Shown one piece after another: positions 2,457-40,570 of a DNA stretch of 64,000 nucleotides. Within the stretch, counting starts at the first letter, position 1; each line of letters begins with the position of its first letter. A program made the position numbers and the translations under genes. Origin of the DNA: Baekduia alba (GTDB taxonomy: Bacteria > Actinomycetota > Thermoleophilia > Solirubrobacterales > Solirubrobacteraceae); NCBI RefSeq assembly GCF_028416635.1, contig NZ_CP114013.1, positions 2,852,001-2,916,000 on the forward strand, written 5' to 3'. Below the pieces are notes generated by a model. It saw only the letters and a program-made list of their open reading frames with translations. It was not told where the DNA came from and searched no databases.

Positions 2457-3122
2457 ATGCGCCGCGCCCACATCTTCGACATGGACGGCACGCTGCTGCA
2501 CGGCACGAGCGCGCCGCTGCTGCTCGCCGGCGCGCTCGGCCAGGTCGACGCGCTGCACGACCTCGAGCGCCGCTTCGCGGAGGGCAGCGCCACCGCGGTC
2601 GACTTCGCCCGCGCGCTGCACGCGATGTGGGGCGTCGTGCCTCCCGAGGTCGCCGCCGAGGCGTTCGCGGCCGCGCCGCTGCTGGCCAACGTCCGCGCGG
2701 TGCTGGCCGACATCCGCGCCCGCGACGAGAGCGCCTGCCTGATCACGATGTCGCCCCAGTACTTCGCCGAGCAGTTCCTGGACTTCGGCTTCGACGCCGT
2801 CTTCGGCTCGCGCTTCCCGCTGACCGCCGACGACCCGCTCGACGAGTCCGCGATCCTCCACCCGCGCGACAAGCCGGTCCTGGCCGAGCGCTTCTGCGCC
2901 GATCACGGCCTCGCCCTCGAGCACGCGATCGCCTACGGCGACTCGATGTCCGACGTCTTCCTCTTCGACGCCGTCGGCATCCGCGTCGCGATCAACGGCG
3001 ACCACCACCTCGCCGAGCGGTGCGACCTCGCGGTCGACGGCACCGACCTGCTGCCCGCCTACGAGGCCGCCCGCCGACTAGGCGATCCTGCGGGCCGCCC
3101 GCGTGCGTCTGACGGTTGCTGA
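2457..3122 (+). CDS. HAD-family phosphatase (SerB-like, subclass IB)
   Basis: All HAD motifs are present: motif I IFDMDGTLLHG (nucleophile Asp8, acid/base Asp10), motif II around CLITMS, a Lys in RDKPVL and motif IV YGDSMSD. A helical cap of about 80 residues sits between motifs I and II, as in IB phosphatases such as phosphoserine phosphatase. The length of 221 residues fits. It begins 8 bp after the nucleotidyltransferase stop, so the two are probably co-transcribed. The last codons and stop overlap one copy of a 78-bp dispersed repeat (see 3109-3186), so the C-terminal tail may be repeat-derived. Confidence 0.8.
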   Translation: MRRAHIFDMDGTLLHGTSAPLLLAGALGQVDALHDLERRFAEGSATAVDFARALHAMWGVVPPEVAAEAFAAAPLLANVRAVLADIRARDESACLITMSPQYFAEQFLDFGFDAVFGSRFPLTADDPLDESAILHPRDKPVLAERFCADHGLALEHAIAYGDSMSDVFLFDAVGIRVAINGDHHLAERCDLAVDGTDLLPAYEAARRLGDPAGRPRASDGC

Positions 3123-3186
3123 CGCGCTTCACGTGCTGGCGCTCGCTGCCGCTGCGCCGGCGACGTCAGCCACGACCGTGCGGGCC
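3109..3186. repeat. 78-bp dispersed repeat, copy 1
   Basis: This segment matches the reverse complement of 12603-12680 at 66 of 78 positions by hand alignment, without gaps. It begins CTGACGG, has a core CGCTTCACGTGC and ends TGCGGGCC. It covers the stop codon of the HAD gene and the following spacer. Inside it, GGCGC and GCGCC could pair as a short hairpin. It is annotated as an intergenic repeat of REP type because it is repeated, short and not in a conserved reading frame. Confidence 0.55.
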
Positions 3187-3217
3187 GCACAACCGACCTA
3201 GGTACGATCGGGCGCCC

Positions 3218-3769
3218 ATGCCCGATCGTCTCTACTTCACCGAGTCCGACGAGGCCAACGCCCTGATCGCGAGCGATCCGATGGCGCTCCTCGTCGGGTT
3301 CGCGCTCGACCAGCAGGTCACCGTCCAGAAGGCGTTCATGGGCCCGCTGGTGATCCAGGAGCGGCTCGGCTCGCTCGACGCCGCCACGCTGGCCGACGCC
3401 GACCTCGACGCGGTGTTCCGCACCAAGCCTGCCGTCCACCGCTATCCGGGCGCGATGGCCAAGCGCGTGCACGACCTCGCCGCGCACATCCGCGACAACT
3501 ACGACGGCGACGCCGCGCGCGTCTGGACCGACGCGACCGACGGTGCCTCGCTGCGCGCCAACCTCGAGGGCCTGCCCGGCTTCGGCGAGATGAAGATCAA
3601 GTCCATGGGGTCGGTCTTGTTCCATCACTACGGGCTGGAGATCGCGCACGACCTCGTGCCGTGGCATCCGACGCTCGGCGGCGTCGCGTCGCCCGAGGGG
3701 CTGGCCGACTACCAGGCCAAGAAGAAGCTCCACAAGGCCGAGTGGACCCGGCCCGCCCCCACCGCATGA
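3218..3769 (+). CDS. HhH-GPD-type base excision DNA repair family protein
   Basis: A 183-residue protein with a helix-hairpin-helix element LPGFGEMKIKSMGS and the N-terminal features ALLVGFALDQQVTVQKAF typical of the small actinobacterial HhH-GPD family of uncharacterised glycosylase-like proteins (TIGR03252 type, from memory). It is expected to bind DNA and perhaps excise damaged bases. There is no [4Fe-4S] cysteine motif and no obvious catalytic Lys, so the activity is inferred only. The ATG at 3218 follows a 95-bp spacer; its stop overlaps the next gene's ATG (ATGA), so the two are translationally coupled. Confidence 0.8.
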   Translation: MPDRLYFTESDEANALIASDPMALLVGFALDQQVTVQKAFMGPLVIQERLGSLDAATLADADLDAVFRTKPAVHRYPGAMAKRVHDLAAHIRDNYDGDAARVWTDATDGASLRANLEGLPGFGEMKIKSMGSVLFHHYGLEIAHDLVPWHPTLGGVASPEGLADYQAKKKLHKAEWTRPAPTA

Positions 3770-31905: not shown

Positions 31906-31955
31906 TCCGCGCTGAGGCGGCCCCGGCGCGCGCGATGCGGCAGGATGGTCCGCGC

Positions 31956-32864
31956 ATGTCGCGCCCCATCGCCCTGCTCGTCAACCCGTCGGCCGGCGGT
32001 GGTCGGGCCCTGAAGGTCCTCCCCGCGGTGGAGGCCGAGCTGCAGCGGCTGGGGCTGACGCACCGCGTCGCGATGACCGAGTCGATCCGGCACACGCGGG
32101 AGCTCGCGACCGCGGCGGCGGACGCGGGCGAGGTCGCGGTCCCGCTGTCGGGCGACGGCCTCGTCGGTGCGGTCGCGGCGGCGCTGCGCGGGCGCGACGA
32201 CGCGGTCATGGGCGTCCTGCCCGGCGGGCGGGGCAACGACTTCGCCCGCTCCGTGGGCATCCCGCGCGACGCGGTCGCCGCGTGCGCGATCCTGGCCGAC
32301 GGCGTGCCCACGCCGCTCGACGTCGGCGAGGTCGTCTCCGACGGCGGCGCCTCGCACGACCCGCAGACCTTCATCGGGATCGCCTCGCTCGGCTTCGACT
32401 CCGACGCCAACCGGATCGCCAACGAGGCGCCCGCCGTGCTCGGCCCGCTCGTGTACGCCTACGGCGCGCTGCGCGCCCTGGCGACGTTCCGGCCCGCGAC
32501 GTTCGACGTCGCCGTCGACCGCGAGCGGCGCACGTTCACCGGCTGGTCGGTCGGCGCCTGCAACACGAGCTTCTACGGTGGAGGGATGCGCGCCGCCCCC
32601 GACGCCCGCCTCGACGACGGCCAGCTCGACGTCCTGATGTGCTGGCCGCGCTCGCGCGTCGAGTTCCTGACGAAGGTGCTGCCACGCGTCTTCAAGGGCA
32701 CGCACACCGAGCTGGACGTCGTCGCCTGCCTGCGCGGCGCCGAGGTCCGGGTCGCCGCCGACCGGCCGTTCACCGTCTACGCCGACGGCGACCCGATCGG
32801 CGAGCTGCCGGTGACGATCCGGGCCGTCCCGGGCGCGATCAAGGTGCTGCTGCCCGCCGCATGA
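31956..32864 (+). CDS. Diacylglycerol/lipid kinase family protein
   Basis: 302 residues with the DAGK catalytic fold: ALLVNPSAGGGRALK, the ATP-binding loop as LSGDGLVGAVA (usual GGDGT altered to SGDGL) and VLPGGRGNDFAR (usual GTGNDFAR), plus the C-terminal TVYADGDPIGELPVTI. It phosphorylates diacylglycerol, sphingoid or polyprenol-like lipids at the inner membrane face. The altered GGDGT motif makes activity a little uncertain. Its stop overlaps the murT ATG (ATGA). Confidence 0.85.
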   Translation: MSRPIALLVNPSAGGGRALKVLPAVEAELQRLGLTHRVAMTESIRHTRELATAAADAGEVAVPLSGDGLVGAVAAALRGRDDAVMGVLPGGRGNDFARSVGIPRDAVAACAILADGVPTPLDVGEVVSDGGASHDPQTFIGIASLGFDSDANRIANEAPAVLGPLVYAYGALRALATFRPATFDVAVDRERRTFTGWSVGACNTSFYGGGMRAAPDARLDDGQLDVLMCWPRSRVEFLTKVLPRVFKGTHTELDVVACLRGAEVRVAADRPFTVYADGDPIGELPVTIRAVPGAIKVLLPAA

Positions 32865-34228
32865 CGCTGTTGGGCGCAAAGCTCGTCGCCGCGCGCGCCG
32901 CCGGCGCGGTCTCGCGCCGCGCGGGCCGCGGCGGCACCTCGCTGCCGGGCAAGCTGCTGCTGCGGATGGAGCCGGGCGCGGTCGGCTCGCTGGCCGCGCG
33001 GCTGGCCAACGGCAGCGCGGTCATCTCGGCCACCAACGGCAAGACGACGACGGCCGCGATGGTCGCCTCGATCCTGGAGCGCGGCGGCCATCGGCTGGTC
33101 CACAACCGCGCGGGCGCGAACATGGCCGGCGGGATCGCGGGCACGCTGCTGGAAGCCGCCGGCCGGGGCCGGTCGATCGACGGCGACACCGGCCTGTTCG
33201 AGATCGACGAGTTCTGGCTGGACCGCCTCGTCCCGCAGATCCGGCCGCGCGCGCTGCTGCTGGCCAACCTGTTCCGCGACCAGCTGGACCGCTACGGCGA
33301 GCTGGAGACGATCGCCGACCGCTGGGCGGGCGTCGTGGCCGAGGCCAAGGACACCACCTTGGTGCTCAACGCCGACGACCCGCTCGTGGCCGACCTGGGC
33401 CGCCAGCGCGACGGCGTCGTGTACTTCGGCGTCGAGGACCCCGCGATGGCGCTGGCGGGGATGGCCCACGCCGCAGACTCCAAGCACTGCCGCCGCTGCG
33501 GCGCGCCCTACCGCTATGACTACGTGTTCTTGGGGCACTTGGGCCACTACCACTGCGACGCGTGCGGCGCGACGCGCCCGGCGCCCGCGGTCGCGGCGGA
33601 GCGCGTCGTGCTCGACGGGGTGCGCGGCGCGCGCGTGACGCTGCGGCTGCCGTCGGCGACGGTCGACGTCGCGCTCCCGCTGCCCGGCCTCTACAACGTG
33701 TACAACGCGCTCGGCGCCGCAGCGCTGACGACCGCTCTCGGCGCGACGCCGGAGGAGGTCGTCGCGGGCCTGGAGGCGGTGGCCGCCGCGTTCGGCCGCG
33801 CCGAGACCGTGCAGCTCGGAGGCCGCGACCTCCTGCTGCTGCTGGTCAAGAACCCGGCCGGCGCCAACGAGGTGCTCCGCACGCTCGCCCTGGAGCCCGG
33901 CGAGCACGACGTCCTCGCCGTCCTGAACGACCACACCGCGGACGGCCGCGACGTGTCCTGGGTCTGGGACGCCGACTTCGAGGTGCTGGCCGGCCGTCTG
34001 CGGCGCGTCGTGTGCAGCGGCACGCGCGCGGCCGAGATGGCGCTGCGCTTCAAGTACGCCGGCGTCGCCGAGGACCGGCTGGTCGTCGAGCCCGAGCTGC
34101 CCGCCGCGCTGGACCGCGCGGTCGGCGACGGCACCGGGCGGCTGGTCGCGATCCCGACCTACACCGCGATGCTCGAGCTGCGCCGCGAGCTGGTGGCGCG
34201 CGGCGCGGCGGGGAGCTCGTTCGGGTGA
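32861..34228 (+). CDS. murT: MurT, lipid II isoglutaminyl synthase Mur-ligase subunit
   Basis: A 455-residue Mur ligase-like protein with ATP motif SATNGKTTTAAMV, the MurT-specific Cys4 zinc ribbon CRRCGAPYRYDYVFLG ... HYHCDACG inside the central domain, and a C-terminal DUF1727 domain with LNDHTADGRDVSWVWDADFE, which carries the catalytic Asp. With GatD it amidates the D-Glu of lipid II to D-isoglutamine. It overlaps the lipid-kinase gene at its start (ATGA) and the methyltransferase at its end (TGATG). Confidence 0.95.
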   Translation: MTLLGAKLVAARAAGAVSRRAGRGGTSLPGKLLLRMEPGAVGSLAARLANGSAVISATNGKTTTAAMVASILERGGHRLVHNRAGANMAGGIAGTLLEAAGRGRSIDGDTGLFEIDEFWLDRLVPQIRPRALLLANLFRDQLDRYGELETIADRWAGVVAEAKDTTLVLNADDPLVADLGRQRDGVVYFGVEDPAMALAGMAHAADSKHCRRCGAPYRYDYVFLGHLGHYHCDACGATRPAPAVAAERVVLDGVRGARVTLRLPSATVDVALPLPGLYNVYNALGAAALTTALGATPEEVVAGLEAVAAAFGRAETVQLGGRDLLLLLVKNPAGANEVLRTLALEPGEHDVLAVLNDHTADGRDVSWVWDADFEVLAGRLRRVVCSGTRAAEMALRFKYAGVAEDRLVVEPELPAALDRAVGDGTGRLVAIPTYTAMLELRRELVARGAAGSSFG

Positions 34229-34965
34229 TGGCCTCCACGACGCCCCGCAGCGTGATCTGGCACGACGTCGAGTGCGGCGGCTACGGCGAGGACCACGCGC
34301 TGTGGCGGGCGCTGGCGGGCGAGGTCGACGGGCCCGTGCTCGACGTGGGCGCCGGGACCGGGCGCGTCGCGCTGGACCTGGCCGCGCACGGCGTCGAGGT
34401 GGTCGCGCTGGACCTCGAGCCGGAGTTGTTGGAGGCCTTGGACGCGCGCGCCGAGCGGCGCGGCGTGCACGTCGAGACGGTCGTCGCCGACGCCCGCTCG
34501 TTCGACGCCGGCGCCGGGCGCTTCGGGCTGGTGATCGTGCCGATGCAGACGCTGCAGCTGCTCGACGGCGCCGCCGAGCGCGCCGCGTTCTTCGGCGCTG
34601 CGCGCCGCGCGCTGCGCCCGGGTGGGCTCGTCGCGATCGCGCTGGCCGACGCGCTGGAGAGCTTCGACGGCGAGTCCGACGGCCTGCCCGAGCCCGACAT
34701 GGCCGTCATCGACGGCCTCCGCTACGTCTCGCTCCCGCTGGCGGTCGTCGACGAGGGCGACCGCGCGGCCATCCACCGCCTGCGGCAGGTCATGGGGATC
34801 ATCGCGCCGGTCGAGGAGGAGCACGACGTCATCCGCCTCGCGCGGGTCGACGCGGTCATGCTCGCCGACGAGGCCGAGGCGCTCGGCTTCGAGGCGCTCG
34901 AGGCGCGCCGGATCCCGGCCACCGACGTGTACGTCGGCTCGACGGTGGTGGTCCTCCGTGGCTGA
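34228..34965 (+). CDS. SAM-dependent methyltransferase inserted between murT and gatD
   Basis: A 245-residue class I methyltransferase: motif I VLDVGAGTGRVALDLA, motif II-like VVALDLEPELLEAL, VVADARSF, and the post-motif RRALRPGGLVAIAL. No membrane or wall-binding segment is present. The start overlaps the murT stop (TGATG) and the end overlaps the GTG of gatD by 8 bp, so all three are translationally coupled. murT and gatD are normally adjacent, so this enzyme may act on lipid II, on a MurT/GatD product or on the complex itself. The substrate is inferred from position only. Confidence 0.85.
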   Translation: MASTTPRSVIWHDVECGGYGEDHALWRALAGEVDGPVLDVGAGTGRVALDLAAHGVEVVALDLEPELLEALDARAERRGVHVETVVADARSFDAGAGRFGLVIVPMQTLQLLDGAAERAAFFGAARRALRPGGLVAIALADALESFDGESDGLPEPDMAVIDGLRYVSLPLAVVDEGDRAAIHRLRQVMGIIAPVEEEHDVIRLARVDAVMLADEAEALGFEALEARRIPATDVYVGSTVVVLRG

Positions 34966-35698
34966 CACGCTGCGCGTCTGCGCGCTCTACCCCGACCTGA
35001 TGAACATCTACGCCGACCGCGGCAACATGTTGATGTTGGAGCGCCGGTGCGGGTGGCGCGGGCTCGGCTTCACGCTCACCGCGGCCGGCCTCGGCGACGT
35101 GATCGACCCCGACGCGCACGACCTCTTCTACCTCGGCGGCGGCCAGGACCGCGACCAGCAGCTCTGCGCGCACGACCTGTACGACAACAAGCGCGAGGCG
35201 CTCCACGCGGCCGCCGCGCGCGGGGCGATCGTCCTGGGGATCTGCGGCGGCATCCAGCTGCTCGGCGACCACTACGAGCTCGGCGACGAACGCGTGCCCG
35301 GCATCGGGTTGGTGGACTTGGTCACCAAGCGGGCGGTCGACGGCTCGCGGCTGACCGGCAACGTCGCGATCGAGCTCGAGTTGGAGGGGTTGGACGGGCC
35401 GCGCGTCCTGGCCGGCTTCGAGAACCACGGCGGGCGGACCGTGCTCGGCGCCGGCGAGCAGCCGCTGGGCCGCGTGCTGAAGGGCCACGGCAACGACGGG
35501 CGCTCCGGCGTCGAGGGCGTGCACCGCGGCTCGGTGATCGGGACCTACCTCCACGGCCCGCTGCTGCCGAAGAACGCGTGGTTCGCCGACTGGCTGCTGG
35601 CGACCGCGCTGCGCCGCGCGCCCGGCGACCTCGCGCTGCTGGACGACGCGCTCGAAGACGCGGCGCACGCCTCGGCGCGCCGCGCGGCCGGCGTCTAG
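34958..35698 (+). CDS. gatD: GatD, lipid II isoglutaminyl synthase glutaminase subunit
   Basis: Class I glutamine amidotransferase of the cobyric acid/GatD type: YPDLMNIYADRGNMLMLERR at the N-terminus, FYLGGGQDRDQQLC, the nucleophile in IVLGICGGIQLLG and the catalytic His in GTYLHGPLLPKNAWFADWLL. It supplies ammonia to MurT for lipid II amidation at the inner membrane face. The GTG start lies inside the methyltransferase gene. Its TAG stop shares CTAG with the stop of the convergent GFA-family gene. Confidence 0.95.
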   Translation: MADTLRVCALYPDLMNIYADRGNMLMLERRCGWRGLGFTLTAAGLGDVIDPDAHDLFYLGGGQDRDQQLCAHDLYDNKREALHAAAARGAIVLGICGGIQLLGDHYELGDERVPGIGLVDLVTKRAVDGSRLTGNVAIELELEGLDGPRVLAGFENHGGRTVLGAGEQPLGRVLKGHGNDGRSGVEGVHRGSVIGTYLHGPLLPKNAWFADWLLATALRRAPGDLALLDDALEDAAHASARRAAGV

Positions 35699-37338: not shown

Positions 37339-38142
37339 GTGAGCTCTCCTGCCGCCGCCACGGTCGAGTTCGACCACGCCGCGAAGTCCTATCCCGGCAC
37401 CGACGAGCCGGCGATCCGCGACCTCAGCCTCGAGGTCCCCGCGGGCAAGCTGACGATCTTCATCGGCCCGTCGGGCTCGGGCAAGACGACGGCGATGCGC
37501 CTCGTCAACCGCATGCTCGAGCTCACCTCCGGCGACGTGCGGGTCGACGGCGTCTCGGTCCGCGACCGCCCCGCCTCCGAGCTGCGCCGCGGCATCGGCT
37601 ACGCGATCCAGCAGATCGGCCTGTTCCCGCACCTCACGGTCGCCGAGAACATCGGGACGGTGCCCAAGCTGCTGGGCTGGGACGGCAAGCGCATCGACGC
37701 GCGCGTCACCGAGCTGCTGGACCTCGTCGGCCTCGAGCAGCCGATGGGCAAGCGCTACCCCGCGCAGCTCTCGGGCGGCCAGCGCCAGCGCGTCGGCGTC
37801 GCCCGCGCGCTCGCCGCCGACCCGCCGCTGCTGCTGATGGACGAGCCGTTCGGCGCGATCGACCCGATCACGCGCGGCCGCCTGCAGGAGGAGTTCCGCC
37901 GCCTGCAGTCCGACCTGGGCAAGACTGTCATCTTCGTCACCCACGACATCGACGAGGCGCTGCGCATCGGCGACCGGATCGCGGTCCTCAAGCCCGGCGG
38001 CGAGCTGGCGCAGTTCGGCACCGCGGAGGAGATCGTCGCGTCGCCCGCCGACGCGTTCGTCGAGGAGTTCGTCGGCGCCGATCGCATGATCGCGCGCCTG
38101 GAGTGGCTGACCTCCGTCCGCGAGGAGGGGCGCCGGCGGTGA
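37339..38142 (+). CDS. Quaternary amine (Opu-type) ABC importer, ATP-binding protein
   Basis: 267 residues: Walker A GPSGSGKTTAMRLVNRM (the MRLVNR after the P-loop is typical of OpuCA/OpuBA), Q-loop AIQQIGLFPHLTV, signature LSGGQRQRVGVARAL, Walker B LLLMDEPFGAIDP and H-loop FVTHDIDEA. There are no C-terminal CBS domains, unlike OpuCA of Bacillus. Substrate class: glycine betaine, choline, carnitine or related (ergothioneine for EgtU-type). The GTG overlaps the stop of a possible 27-codon upstream frame. Its own stop overlaps the first permease (GTGA). Confidence 0.92.
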   Translation: MSSPAAATVEFDHAAKSYPGTDEPAIRDLSLEVPAGKLTIFIGPSGSGKTTAMRLVNRMLELTSGDVRVDGVSVRDRPASELRRGIGYAIQQIGLFPHLTVAENIGTVPKLLGWDGKRIDARVTELLDLVGLEQPMGKRYPAQLSGGQRQRVGVARALAADPPLLLMDEPFGAIDPITRGRLQEEFRRLQSDLGKTVIFVTHDIDEALRIGDRIAVLKPGGELAQFGTAEEIVASPADAFVEEFVGADRMIARLEWLTSVREEGRRR

Positions 38143-38861
38143 CCGCCGACACGCTCACGATCCTCGGGCAGGTCCAGATCCACCGCCGCGACGCGGGCAC
38201 GCTGTCGTGCGTCCAGGACAACGGCATCTGCCCGGACTGGATCGTCCACCACCTCGACGACTACCTGTCGCCGCTGTGGCGCCATCTGGAGCTCACGCTC
38301 GCCAGCGTCGCGATCGGCTTCGTCATCGCGTTCGCGCTGGCGCTGATCGCCCACGAGCGCCGCTGGCTGGCCGGGCCGATCGTCGGCGTCACCGGCATCC
38401 TCTACACGATCCCGTCGCTGGCGCTGTTCGCGATCCTGATCCCGCTCACCGGCTTCGGCTTCGCGACCGCGCTGATCCCGCTGACCGCGTACACGCTGCT
38501 GATCCTGTTCCGCAACATCATCGCGGGGCTGGACAACGTGCCGGCCGAGGCCAAGGACGCCGCGCTGGGCATGGGCTTCACCGACCGCCAGCTGCTGTGG
38601 AAGGTCGAGCTGCCGCTCGCGCTGCCCGAGATCTTCGCGGGCCTGCGCGTCGCGACGACGACGAACGTCGGCCTCGCCGCGCTGGCCTTCTACGCCGGCG
38701 CCGGCGGCCTCGGCCAGCAGATCCTCACCGACATCGCGTTCAAGTCCAACATCCTGGTCGCCGGCGGCCTCTGCGTCCTGCTGGCCTTCGTGCTGGACCT
38801 GGCGCTGCTCGGCATCCAGCGGCTGATGCTGCCCTGGCAGCGCGCGAGGGCGACCGCGTGA
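38139..38861 (+). CDS. Opu-type ABC importer permease 1
   Basis: A 240-residue permease with a 45-residue N-terminal periplasmic-type stretch, then about five or six membrane helices and the ABC permease EAA loop (NVPAEAKDAALGMGFTDRQL, then WKVELPLALPEIFAGLR). It forms the channel together with the second permease. The GTG overlaps the ATPase stop and its stop overlaps the next GTG (GTGA on both sides). Confidence 0.9.
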   Translation: MTADTLTILGQVQIHRRDAGTLSCVQDNGICPDWIVHHLDDYLSPLWRHLELTLASVAIGFVIAFALALIAHERRWLAGPIVGVTGILYTIPSLALFAILIPLTGFGFATALIPLTAYTLLILFRNIIAGLDNVPAEAKDAALGMGFTDRQLLWKVELPLALPEIFAGLRVATTTNVGLAALAFYAGAGGLGQQILTDIAFKSNILVAGGLCVLLAFVLDLALLGIQRLMLPWQRARATA

Positions 38862-40570
38862 AGGACGCCATCAACTACCTGCTGCACTCGCGCGAGTCGG
38901 TCGGCGGCGGCGTCGAGATCGGCGGCAGCCACCTCTGGCCGCTGCTGTGGACCCACCTGCGGGTGACCTTCGAGGCGATGGTCGTGGCGATCGCGCTGGC
39001 GCTGCCGCTCGCGCTCTGGCTCGGCCACAAGGGCAAGGGCCAGCTCGCCGCGTCGACCGCCGCCAACGTCGGGCGCGCCGTCCCGAGCTTCGCGGTCCTG
39101 GTCTTCGCCTCGACCTACCTGGGGCTCAACGCCGGCAACCTCGTCTTCGCGATGGTCCTGCTCGCGGTCCCGCCGATCTTCACCAACACCTACGTCGGGG
39201 TCCGCCAGGTCGACCGCGACGTGGTCGACGCCGCCCGCGGCATGGGGCTCTCCGAGCGCCAGCTCGCGGTGCGGGTCGAGCTGCCGCTCACGCTGCCGCT
39301 GGTCTTCGGCGGCATCCGGACGTCGGTCGTCAACGTGCTGGCGACGGCGACGCTCGGACCCTACGTCGGGGTCGACACGCTCGGCGTGCCGATCATCAAC
39401 GCCAACGTCCACGGCGACGCCGGTCGCCTCGGCACCGCGATGCTGGTCGCGCTGCTGGCGATCGGAGCGGAGCTCCTGTTCGCCGCCCTGCAGCGCGCCG
39501 TGACGCCTCGCGGACTCAAGCTCTCCCAGCAGACACCCACCCCCAGGAGGAACCGACGCATGCGCTCTCGCAGCGTCCTCGCCCTGCTCGTGCTGGTCTT
39601 GGCCACCTTCGGCCTGGCCGCATGCGGCAGCGACGACGACAACAACAGCGGCGGCACCGGCGCCGACACGGGCCAGTCCACGGCCGCGTCGACCACGGCC
39701 GCCACCGATTCGAAGGCCATCCAGTCCAACCCCGAGAACGGCAGCAAGCCGCAGGTCACGATCGGGTCCAAGAACTTCACCGAGGAGTTCATCCTCGGCG
39801 AGATCTACGCCCAGTCGCTGCAGGCCGCCGGCTACAAGGTCAAGAAGCAGCTGAACCTCGGTTCGGAGCAGATCGCCCTGAAGGCCCTGAAGGCCGGCAC
39901 CATCGACGCGTACCCGGAGTACACCGGCACCGCGTTGACGAGCTTCTTCAAGGTCAAGAACGAGGACGTGCCGAAGGACCCGCAGGAGGCGTACGCGATG
40001 ACGAAGGACGAGTTCGCCAAGATCGGGTTCACCGCCTTCGCCCCGACGCCGTTCACGGACTCCAACGGCTTCGCGATGACCCAGGAGGGCGCGCAGAAGG
40101 CCGGCAACGTGACGACGCTCTCGGGCCTCAAGCCCAAGGCCTCGTCGCTGGTCCTGGCCGGGCCGCCGGAGTGCGCCCAGCGCCTGGACTGCAAGCTCGG
40201 CCTGGAGAAGGTGTACGGGTTGAAGTTCAAGCAGTTCAAGTCGATCGACCTCGCCAAGCGCCACGAGGTGCTCAAGAGCGGCCAGGCCGACGTGTCGCTG
40301 GTGTTCACCACCGACGGCCAGATCAAGGCCGACAACCTGGTCCTGCTCAAGGACGACAAGTCGCTGTTCCCGCCCTACAACGCGTCGCTGATCGCCAACA
40401 CCAGCGTCGTGAAGGGGGCCGGTCCCGACTTCCAGAAGACGATCGACACGGTGACGTCGGGTCTGACCACCGAGGTCATGCAGGAGCTCAACTCCCGCGT
40501 CGACCTCGACAAGGAGAAGCCGGCCGCCGTGGCAAAGGAGTACCTGAAGGAGGCGGGCTACCTCCAGTAG
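38858..40570 (+). CDS. Opu-type permease 2 read through in frame into the substrate-binding protein
   Basis: A single 570-codon frame. Residues 1-215 are a permease (helices from about 25, EAA loop DRDVVDAARGMGLSERQL and VELPLTLPLVFGGIR). A basic linker (RGLKLSQQTPTPRRNRR) leads without a stop codon into a complete lipoprotein-type binding protein starting at Met235. Fused permease-binding proteins are known in some Opu systems, and the linker topology (basic side in, hydrophobic segment next) would suit a fusion. An AGGAGG stands before the internal ATG, so free binding protein is probably also made. See the internal feature at 39560. Confidence 0.75.
   Translation: MKDAINYLLHSRESVGGGVEIGGSHLWPLLWTHLRVTFEAMVVAIALALPLALWLGHKGKGQLAASTAANVGRAVPSFAVLVFASTYLGLNAGNLVFAMVLLAVPPIFTNTYVGVRQVDRDVVDAARGMGLSERQLAVRVELPLTLPLVFGGIRTSVVNVLATATLGPYVGVDTLGVPIINANVHGDAGRLGTAMLVALLAIGAELLFAALQRAVTPRGLKLSQQTPTPRRNRRMRSRSVLALLVLVLATFGLAACGSDDDNNSGGTGADTGQSTAASTTAATDSKAIQSNPENGSKPQVTIGSKNFTEEFILGEIYAQSLQAAGYKVKKQLNLGSEQIALKALKAGTIDAYPEYTGTALTSFFKVKNEDVPKDPQEAYAMTKDEFAKIGFTAFAPTPFTDSNGFAMTQEGAQKAGNVTTLSGLKPKASSLVLAGPPECAQRLDCKLGLEKVYGLKFKQFKSIDLAKRHEVLKSGQADVSLVFTTDGQIKADNLVLLKDDKSLFPPYNASLIANTSVVKGAGPDFQKTIDTVTSGLTTEVMQELNSRVDLDKEKPAAVAKEYLKEAGYLQ
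39545..39550 (+). promoter_or_regulatory. Internal Shine-Dalgarno for the binding protein
   Basis: AGGAGG, nine bases before the ATG at 39560, inside the continuous permease-binding protein frame. It is stronger than the sites before most genes here. Confidence 0.6.
39560..40570 (+). CDS. Glycine betaine/quaternary amine-binding lipoprotein (internal start of the fused frame)
   Basis: From the internal ATG the product is 336 residues: lipoprotein signal with lipobox GLAAC (Cys22), an Asp/Asn/Ser/Thr linker of about 45 residues, then the OpuAC/OsmF-type domain beginning VTIGSKNFTEEFILGEIYAQ and including TIDAYPEYTGTAL and ADVSLVFTTDGQI. It binds the transported osmolyte at the outer face of the membrane. 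The lipobox and AGGAGG strongly suggest that it can be made alone, although the upstream permease has no stop codon. Confidence 0.85.
   Translation: MRSRSVLALLVLVLATFGLAACGSDDDNNSGGTGADTGQSTAASTTAATDSKAIQSNPENGSKPQVTIGSKNFTEEFILGEIYAQSLQAAGYKVKKQLNLGSEQIALKALKAGTIDAYPEYTGTALTSFFKVKNEDVPKDPQEAYAMTKDEFAKIGFTAFAPTPFTDSNGFAMTQEGAQKAGNVTTLSGLKPKASSLVLAGPPECAQRLDCKLGLEKVYGLKFKQFKSIDLAKRHEVLKSGQADVSLVFTTDGQIKADNLVLLKDDKSLFPPYNASLIANTSVVKGAGPDFQKTIDTVTSGLTTEVMQELNSRVDLDKEKPAAVAKEYLKEAGYLQ

What the first reader, a model, noticed from the sequence alone, without database searches (positions are those of the whole stretch)
34228..34965. Methyltransferase translationally coupled between murT and gatD
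murT and gatD are normally neighbours and their products form one enzyme. Here a SAM methyltransferase sits between them with start and stop overlaps of 1 and 8 bp, so all three are made in step. It may methylate a lipid II intermediate or the amidated product (for example an O-methyl or N-methyl glutamyl residue), which would be an undescribed wall modification, or it may regulate the complex.
Basis: partly seen in the sequence, partly recalled or inferred. Interest (0 to 1): 0.7.

Follow-up and report, generated by a model that had tools for sequence, protein, structure and literature searches.

The report
Methyltransferase gene inside cell-wall amidation operon
A methyltransferase gene sits, overlapping at both ends, between the two genes of a cell-wall amidating enzyme across a whole order of soil bacteria and a second order, yet it survives in relatives that have lost that enzyme, so it is probably a separate, still unknown envelope-modifying activity rather than part of the amidation reaction.

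Summary
murT (32861-34228), a class I SAM methyltransferase (MT, 34228-34965) and gatD (34958-35698) overlap head to tail, behind a YegS-type lipid kinase (31935-32864). It is not a local oddity. 64 non-duplicate loci of the order (and 28 genomes of a second order of the class) carry murT-MT-gatD, usually with 1-13 bp overlaps. Sixty-seven sampled murT/gatD genomes elsewhere in the phylum do not. MTs of both orders share an active-site signature absent from other MTs of the class. The only two high-quality genomes of the order without gatD (and without murT) both keep the MT, signature intact, directly behind the lipid kinase. Eight others keep gatD and have lost the MT. One genus moved murT away and kept MT-gatD. 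Branch-rate covariation is complex-like for murT-gatD (partial r 0.66), not for MT with either (0.22, 0.28). So the MT is an independent enzyme, not a subunit, and does not need the amidated product. An envelope-precursor substrate fits best but is unproven; an unrelated small-molecule substrate is not excluded. The fold is that of N-methyltransferases such as TylM1, CypM and CcbJ. No paper describing this gene order was found.

The parts
31935..32864 (+). YegS/DAGK-family lipid kinase, first gene of the coupled run; overlaps murT by 4 bp; stays next to the MT where murT and gatD are gone
   Evidence: YegS_C 158.8 bits, DAGK_cat 85.7
32861..34228 (+). murT: Mur-ligase-like subunit of lipid II isoglutaminyl synthase; TNGKTT (58), GAN (85), two CxxC pairs (210, 232), KNP (330) and DGRD (361) present
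34225..34230 (+). murT stop / MT start junction GTGATG: 1-bp overlap with the ATG at 34228, or 4-bp with the GTG at 34225
34228..34965 (+). class I SAM-dependent methyltransferase, 245 aa (the finding)
   Evidence: (AlphaFold2 pLDDT 94.9)
34258..34305 (+). N-terminal cap residues W11..E15...Y19..D22...W26; E15, Y19, D22 and W26 are shared with the MTs of the second order
34336..34365 (+). SAM-binding motif I VLDVGAGTGR (residues 37-46)
34543..34557 (+). motif IV active-site signature M106-Q107-T-L-Q110
34777..34785 (+). invariant or nearly invariant R184 and R186 in the C-terminal sheet; only in the MTs of this order
34958..34965 (+). 8-bp overlap GTGGCTGA of gatD start and MT stop
34958..35698 (+). 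gatD: glutaminase subunit; GICGG with Cys96, GTYLHG with His199, YADRGN with Asp20

Best explanation
The gene encodes an intact, free-standing class I SAM methyltransferase that became fixed between murT and gatD long ago and is made in step with them by stop/start-overlap coupling. It is neither a subunit of the MurT/GatD amidotransferase nor dependent on its product. The most likely role is methylation of a small amino- or carboxyl-bearing cell-envelope precursor (a lipid II / stem-peptide or lipid-kinase-linked intermediate) made at the same time and place. Shown here: gene identity, overlapping arrangement, long conservation, shared active-site signature, and independence from murT/gatD. 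Inferred: translational coupling itself, and that the substrate is an envelope precursor. Not determined: the atom methylated.
For: Intact SAM motif and confident GNMT/TylM1/CcbJ-type fold. murT-MT-gatD with overlaps in 64 loci of the order and in the second order; 28 genomes of that order have both hits listed, all adjacent. Eight-residue active-site signature scoring 7-8 of 8 in 66/71 MTs of the order (the other five 5-6) and 7 in all 10 of the second order, against 0-3 in 16/17 other MTs. Retained with full signature behind the lipid kinase in G047, G071 and G323, where murT and gatD are absent, with dN/dS in the usual range. Kept with gatD when murT moved away in one genus. In the second order it sits with murT-gatD but no lipid kinase was found upstream, so the lipid kinase is not the sole partner. 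What all these genomes share is envelope synthesis.
Against: No direct substrate evidence; gene position is the only pointer to the envelope. Lost at least four times while murT-gatD stayed, so it is dispensable. No curated family names a wall methyltransferase close to it. Its rate covariation is as high with the lipid kinase (0.34) as with murT or gatD.
Confidence: 0.42

Rival explanations
1. The MT acts on an unrelated small molecule (for example a secondary metabolite or an osmolyte) and stays in this operon only because the position gives steady expression.
For: Nearest folds are small-molecule N-methyltransferases. Repeated losses and the fastest evolution of the four genes (total tree length 19.9 against 9.6-11.9). 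A second, unlinked copy exists in one genus. A glycine-betaine-type ABC transporter follows gatD in many genomes of the window's family.
Against: Same position and overlaps in two orders with a shared active-site signature, although flanking genes changed. No match over cut-off to glycine/sarcosine methyltransferase NF051855 (24.7 bits against 350). The transporter was not found beside the operon in most loci outside the window's family, where flanks are short.
Confidence: 0.33
2. First reader, option 1: the MT methylates the amidated product (D-isoglutamine) or a residue made accessible by amidation.
For: Gene order and coupling with both amidation genes in two orders. Methylated stem residues are known in M. 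smegmatis.
Against: MT with unchanged signature persists in genomes without murT and gatD, where no amidated product is expected.
Confidence: 0.08
3. First reader, option 2: the MT is a third subunit or regulator of the MurT/GatD complex.
For: Strict overlap of the genes across dozens of genomes, which often marks interacting proteins.
Against: MT kept without MurT/GatD and MurT/GatD kept without MT. Partial rate correlation with murT 0.22 and gatD 0.28, against 0.66 for the known complex pair. Active-site residues are conserved as in a catalyst.
Confidence: 0.1
4. The MT partners the upstream YegS-type lipid kinase in lipid modification.
For: The lipid kinase precedes murT or the MT in most loci of the order with enough upstream sequence; it stays with the MT when murT and gatD are lost.
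Against: No lipid-kinase hit upstream of murT in the ten fetched loci of the second order, where the MT is also present. Some lineages keep the lipid kinase beside murT-gatD without the MT (L067, L077, L089).
Confidence: 0.07

Closest known systems
MurT/GatD lipid II isoglutaminyl synthase operon (Staphylococcus aureus, Streptococcus pneumoniae, Mycobacterium tuberculosis)
   Same: Both subunits present with their catalytic motifs, in the usual order and strand
   Different: A 245-aa methyltransferase gene lies between the two, overlapping both, and a lipid kinase overlaps murT upstream
GNMT/TylM1/CcbJ/CypM-type class I methyltransferases (Methyltransf_25)
   Same: Whole-length fold match (3d2l Z 24.3, 1wzn 24.1, TylM1 23.7, CypM 22.6, CcbJ 21.9), same motif I
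   Different: About 14-24% identity; own signature E15/Y19/W26/M106/Q110 plus S168, R184, R186; substrate unknown
Daptide-type RiPP methyltransferase (NF041820, MpaM)
   Same: Matched by every in-locus MT of the order, and the best NCBIfam hit of the window's MT
   Different: Far below cut-off (91.8 against 175). Unrelated MTs of the class score 62-116, so the hit is not specific. No daptide genes were recognised beside the gene
Methylated lipid II / muropeptides of Mycobacterium smegmatis
   Same: Precedent for methyl groups on Glu, DAP and Ala of the stem peptide (PMC12632261, citing Mahapatra 2005)
   Different: Whether any enzyme is assigned was not established here; no link to this gene shown

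Membership tests
MurT/GatD lipid II isoglutaminyl synthase | MurT_C plus Mur ligase middle domain, with cysteine-rich insertion (two CxxC pairs) | tested here: met
   PF08353 121.8 bits, PF08245 57.8 bits; CRRC at 210, CDAC at 232
MurT/GatD lipid II isoglutaminyl synthase | GatD class I glutaminase with catalytic Cys and His | tested here: met
   PF07685 118 bits; GICGG (Cys96), GTYLHG (His199); roles after PMC6085368
MurT/GatD lipid II isoglutaminyl synthase | NCBIfam equivalog cut-offs (NF045635 800 bits, NF045636 400 bits) | tested here: not met
   259.4 and 164.5 bits; these cut-offs are set high, while the Pfam domain cut-offs and catalytic motifs are met
class I SAM methyltransferase, Methyltransf_25 | Domain above curated cut-off, GxGxG motif I | tested here: met
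   66.8 against 27 bits; G41, G43, G45 invariant in 57 sequences
TylM1/CypM/CcbJ-type N-methyltransferase | Fold over the whole length | tested here: met
   Z 21.9-23.7 over 223-224 residues
TylM1/CypM/CcbJ-type N-methyltransferase | Methylation of a primary amine | not testable with these tools
   needs an enzyme assay; C-methyltransferases (PsmD, SgMT) also match the fold
Daptide-type RiPP methyltransferase NF041820 | Score above 175 bits | tested here: not met
   91.8 bits; unrelated MTs score 62-116
Glycine/sarcosine N-methyltransferase NF051855 | Score above 350 bits | tested here: not met
   24.7 bits
Third subunit of the MurT/GatD complex | Presence tied to MurT/GatD | tested here: not met
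   retained without murT/gatD, lost with them present
Third subunit of the MurT/GatD complex | Physical association | not testable with these tools
   no complex prediction or pull-down available

The most novel reading that the evidence does not exclude
The MT places a methyl group on lipid II or another peptidoglycan precursor (stem-peptide carboxyl or amine, or an amino sugar) in Solirubrobacterales and a second order of the class: a widespread wall modification with a dedicated enzyme, independent of D-glutamate amidation.
Probability: 0.25. Interest if true: 0.75.

Novelty: new variant of a known kind. Interest (0 to 1): 0.45.

Why it matters
murT and gatD are usually close together; in a phylum sample 62 of 68 pairs outside this class lay within 300 bp. 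A methyltransferase held between them across a whole order and a second order, with a common active-site signature, points to an unrecognised step in envelope synthesis. Methylated stem peptides have been reported in mycobacteria. Natural gene losses in both directions supply ready-made comparison strains for finding the substrate.

Tried and rejected
Own-genome paralogues as the source of the hits: they score 23-44 bits against 509.5 for the gene itself. Daptide-family match as a substrate clue: rejected, because unrelated MTs of the class match equally well. One common origin for the MTs of the two orders: not settled. The tree rejects neither (order + second order) as one clade (p-AU 0.449) nor (second order + other MTs) (p-AU 0.258), and the murT+gatD tree puts the second order with families that lack the MT; the shared signature favours one origin, but it was named after the alignment was seen. 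Apparent 743-bp gap in G435: a partial murT hit covering residues 16-196 only, so not an inserted gene. Osmolyte idea from the neighbouring ABC transporter: kept as part of a rival. Literature: no paper on a murT-methyltransferase-gatD order and none on 'methylated muropeptide' with methyltransferase, in an open-licence library only. One family scan failed on a wrong coordinate and one on a frame with a stop; both were replaced.

Full report
Observation. The window lies at 2,852,001-2,916,000 of a one-contig genome of 5.86 Mb. Four genes run without gaps: a YegS/DAGK-type lipid kinase (31935-32864), murT (32861-34228), a methyltransferase (MT, 34228-34965) and gatD (34958-35698). The overlaps are 4, 1 and 8 bp. 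A GTG one codon before the MT's ATG would make the second overlap 4 bp, which is the commonest value in relatives.

What the proteins are. MurT has MurT_C and Mur ligase middle domains, two CxxC pairs, and the GAN, KNP and DGRD motifs. GatD has the glutaminase Cys and His; the meaning of these residues is taken from the S. pneumoniae structure paper PMC6085368. The amidotransferase therefore looks functional. The MT is a Methyltransf_25 enzyme with an intact SAM motif. AlphaFold2 gives pLDDT 94.9. The closest solved folds are 3d2l and 1wzn (unknown function), the sugar N-methyltransferases TylM1 and DesVI, CypM, glycine/sarcosine N-methyltransferase, CcbJ and MtfA, but also C-methyltransferases. 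The fold does not decide the acceptor atom. All 57 in-locus MTs of the alignment match the daptide methyltransferase model; the window's MT is far below its cut-off, and unrelated MTs match about equally well, so this is not substrate evidence.

Conservation of the order. In the order (232 genomes held; 112 at least 90% complete and at most 5% contaminated), gatD is found in 110 and the MT in 104 of the 112. In 64 non-duplicate loci holding all three genes, the MT overlaps murT in 56 and overlaps or touches gatD in 54 (loci). Named relatives are Solirubrobacterales, Solirubrobacteraceae and Thermoleophilaceae MAGs. In family f5, of another order of the class, ten of ten fetched loci have an MT in the same place with overlaps, and all 28 f5 genomes for which both hits were listed show adjacency (my comparison of coordinates). 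Families f4, f7, f9 and f11 have murT-gatD without an MT between. In a phylum sample of 198 genomes, 62 of 68 murT-gatD pairs outside the class (67 genomes) lie within 300 bp, five are far apart or split, and the single 743-bp gap is a partial murT hit. So the insertion appears limited to this class, as far as sampled.

One family or two. The MTs of the order and of f5 each form a clade. Trees reject neither a shared origin (p-AU 0.449) nor a grouping of f5 with other MTs (p-AU 0.258). The murT+gatD tree places f5 with the MT-free families. But the two sets share E15, Y/F19, D22, W26, M106, Q/N107 and Q/H110: 66 of 71 MTs of the order score 7-8 of 8 and all ten f5 MTs score 7, while 16 of 17 other MTs score 0-3. 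I read this as probably the same ancestor and substrate class; two insertions remain possible. R184, R186 and S168 are specific to the order.

Independence from amidation. G047 and G071 (96% and 94% complete; 30 and 10 contigs as tabulated) are the only two high-quality genomes of the order without gatD. They also lack murT, with no MurT_C domain at E 0.1 or better, while the window genome and four others scored 107-124 bits in the same search. Both keep the MT directly behind the lipid kinase with a 4-bp overlap, as does G323, a less complete genome of G047's genus. All three have the full signature plus R184, R186 and S168, and dN/dS between G047 and G323 is 0.55, within the range of in-locus MTs. 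In genus g41, murT lies elsewhere in the genome; in G296, where the locus was read, the order is lipid kinase-MT-gatD. Conversely, eight high-quality genomes keep gatD and have no MT match at E 1e-10 or better (from the tables G127, G130, G175, G188, G103, G208, G388, G390); on the murT+gatD tree these are at least four losses. Branch-length covariation over 33 loci recovers the known complex (murT-gatD partial r 0.66) but gives 0.22 and 0.28 for the MT with murT and gatD, and 0.34 with the lipid kinase.

Reading. The MT is a separate enzyme whose gene is long and tightly joined to murT and gatD. A substrate that exists only after amidation, or a role as subunit, does not fit the genomes that lost murT and gatD. 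A lipid-kinase-only role does not fit f5, where no lipid kinase was found upstream. An envelope precursor present in all of them fits best, but rests on gene position. An unrelated small-molecule substrate remains a serious rival.

Limits. MAG completeness could hide genes, although two genera agree. Rate covariation with 33 loci is a weak test. The library searched for literature holds open-licence papers only. Translational coupling is inferred from the overlaps, not measured. No chemistry was tested.

Noticed in passing
L031:890-1474 and L082 about 2717-3298 (genus g27 of family f3): A gamma-glutamyl cyclotransferase (GGACT, PF06094, 27 bits against cut-off 22.8 for the L031 protein) gene lies between murT and the MT, a second insertion into the same operon by an enzyme type that acts on gamma-glutamyl bonds.
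   Followed up: partly
L118:6126-6863 and L128:5833-6555: Genus g15 carries a second, unlinked copy of the MT; in G157 it is closer to the window's MT (55-56%) than the genome's own in-locus copy (46-47%).
   Followed up: partly
L085:2368-4700; L132: In G296 (genus g41) murT has moved elsewhere in the genome and the operon reads lipid kinase-MT-gatD.
   Followed up: partly
window 37339-40570: A glycine-betaine/choline-type ABC transporter (ATPase, permeases, binding protein; named from the translations) follows the operon; its ATPase gene lies downstream of gatD in many genomes of the same family.
   Followed up: partly
L148 (G065:C24): A divergent unlinked MT paralogue that keeps W11, E15, Y19, D22, W26 and Q110 but not M106 or Q107.
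   Followed up: no
L113 1997-3883: In G027 (family f7) murT and gatD are separated by about 2.1 kb holding an opposite-strand ORF that looks like a subtilisin-type protease.
   Followed up: no
G208, G103, G188 and G240 loci (L089, L077, L067, L129): Several lineages that lost the MT have longer murT/gatD branches than MT-bearing relatives; whether this is genome-wide was not tested.
   Followed up: no
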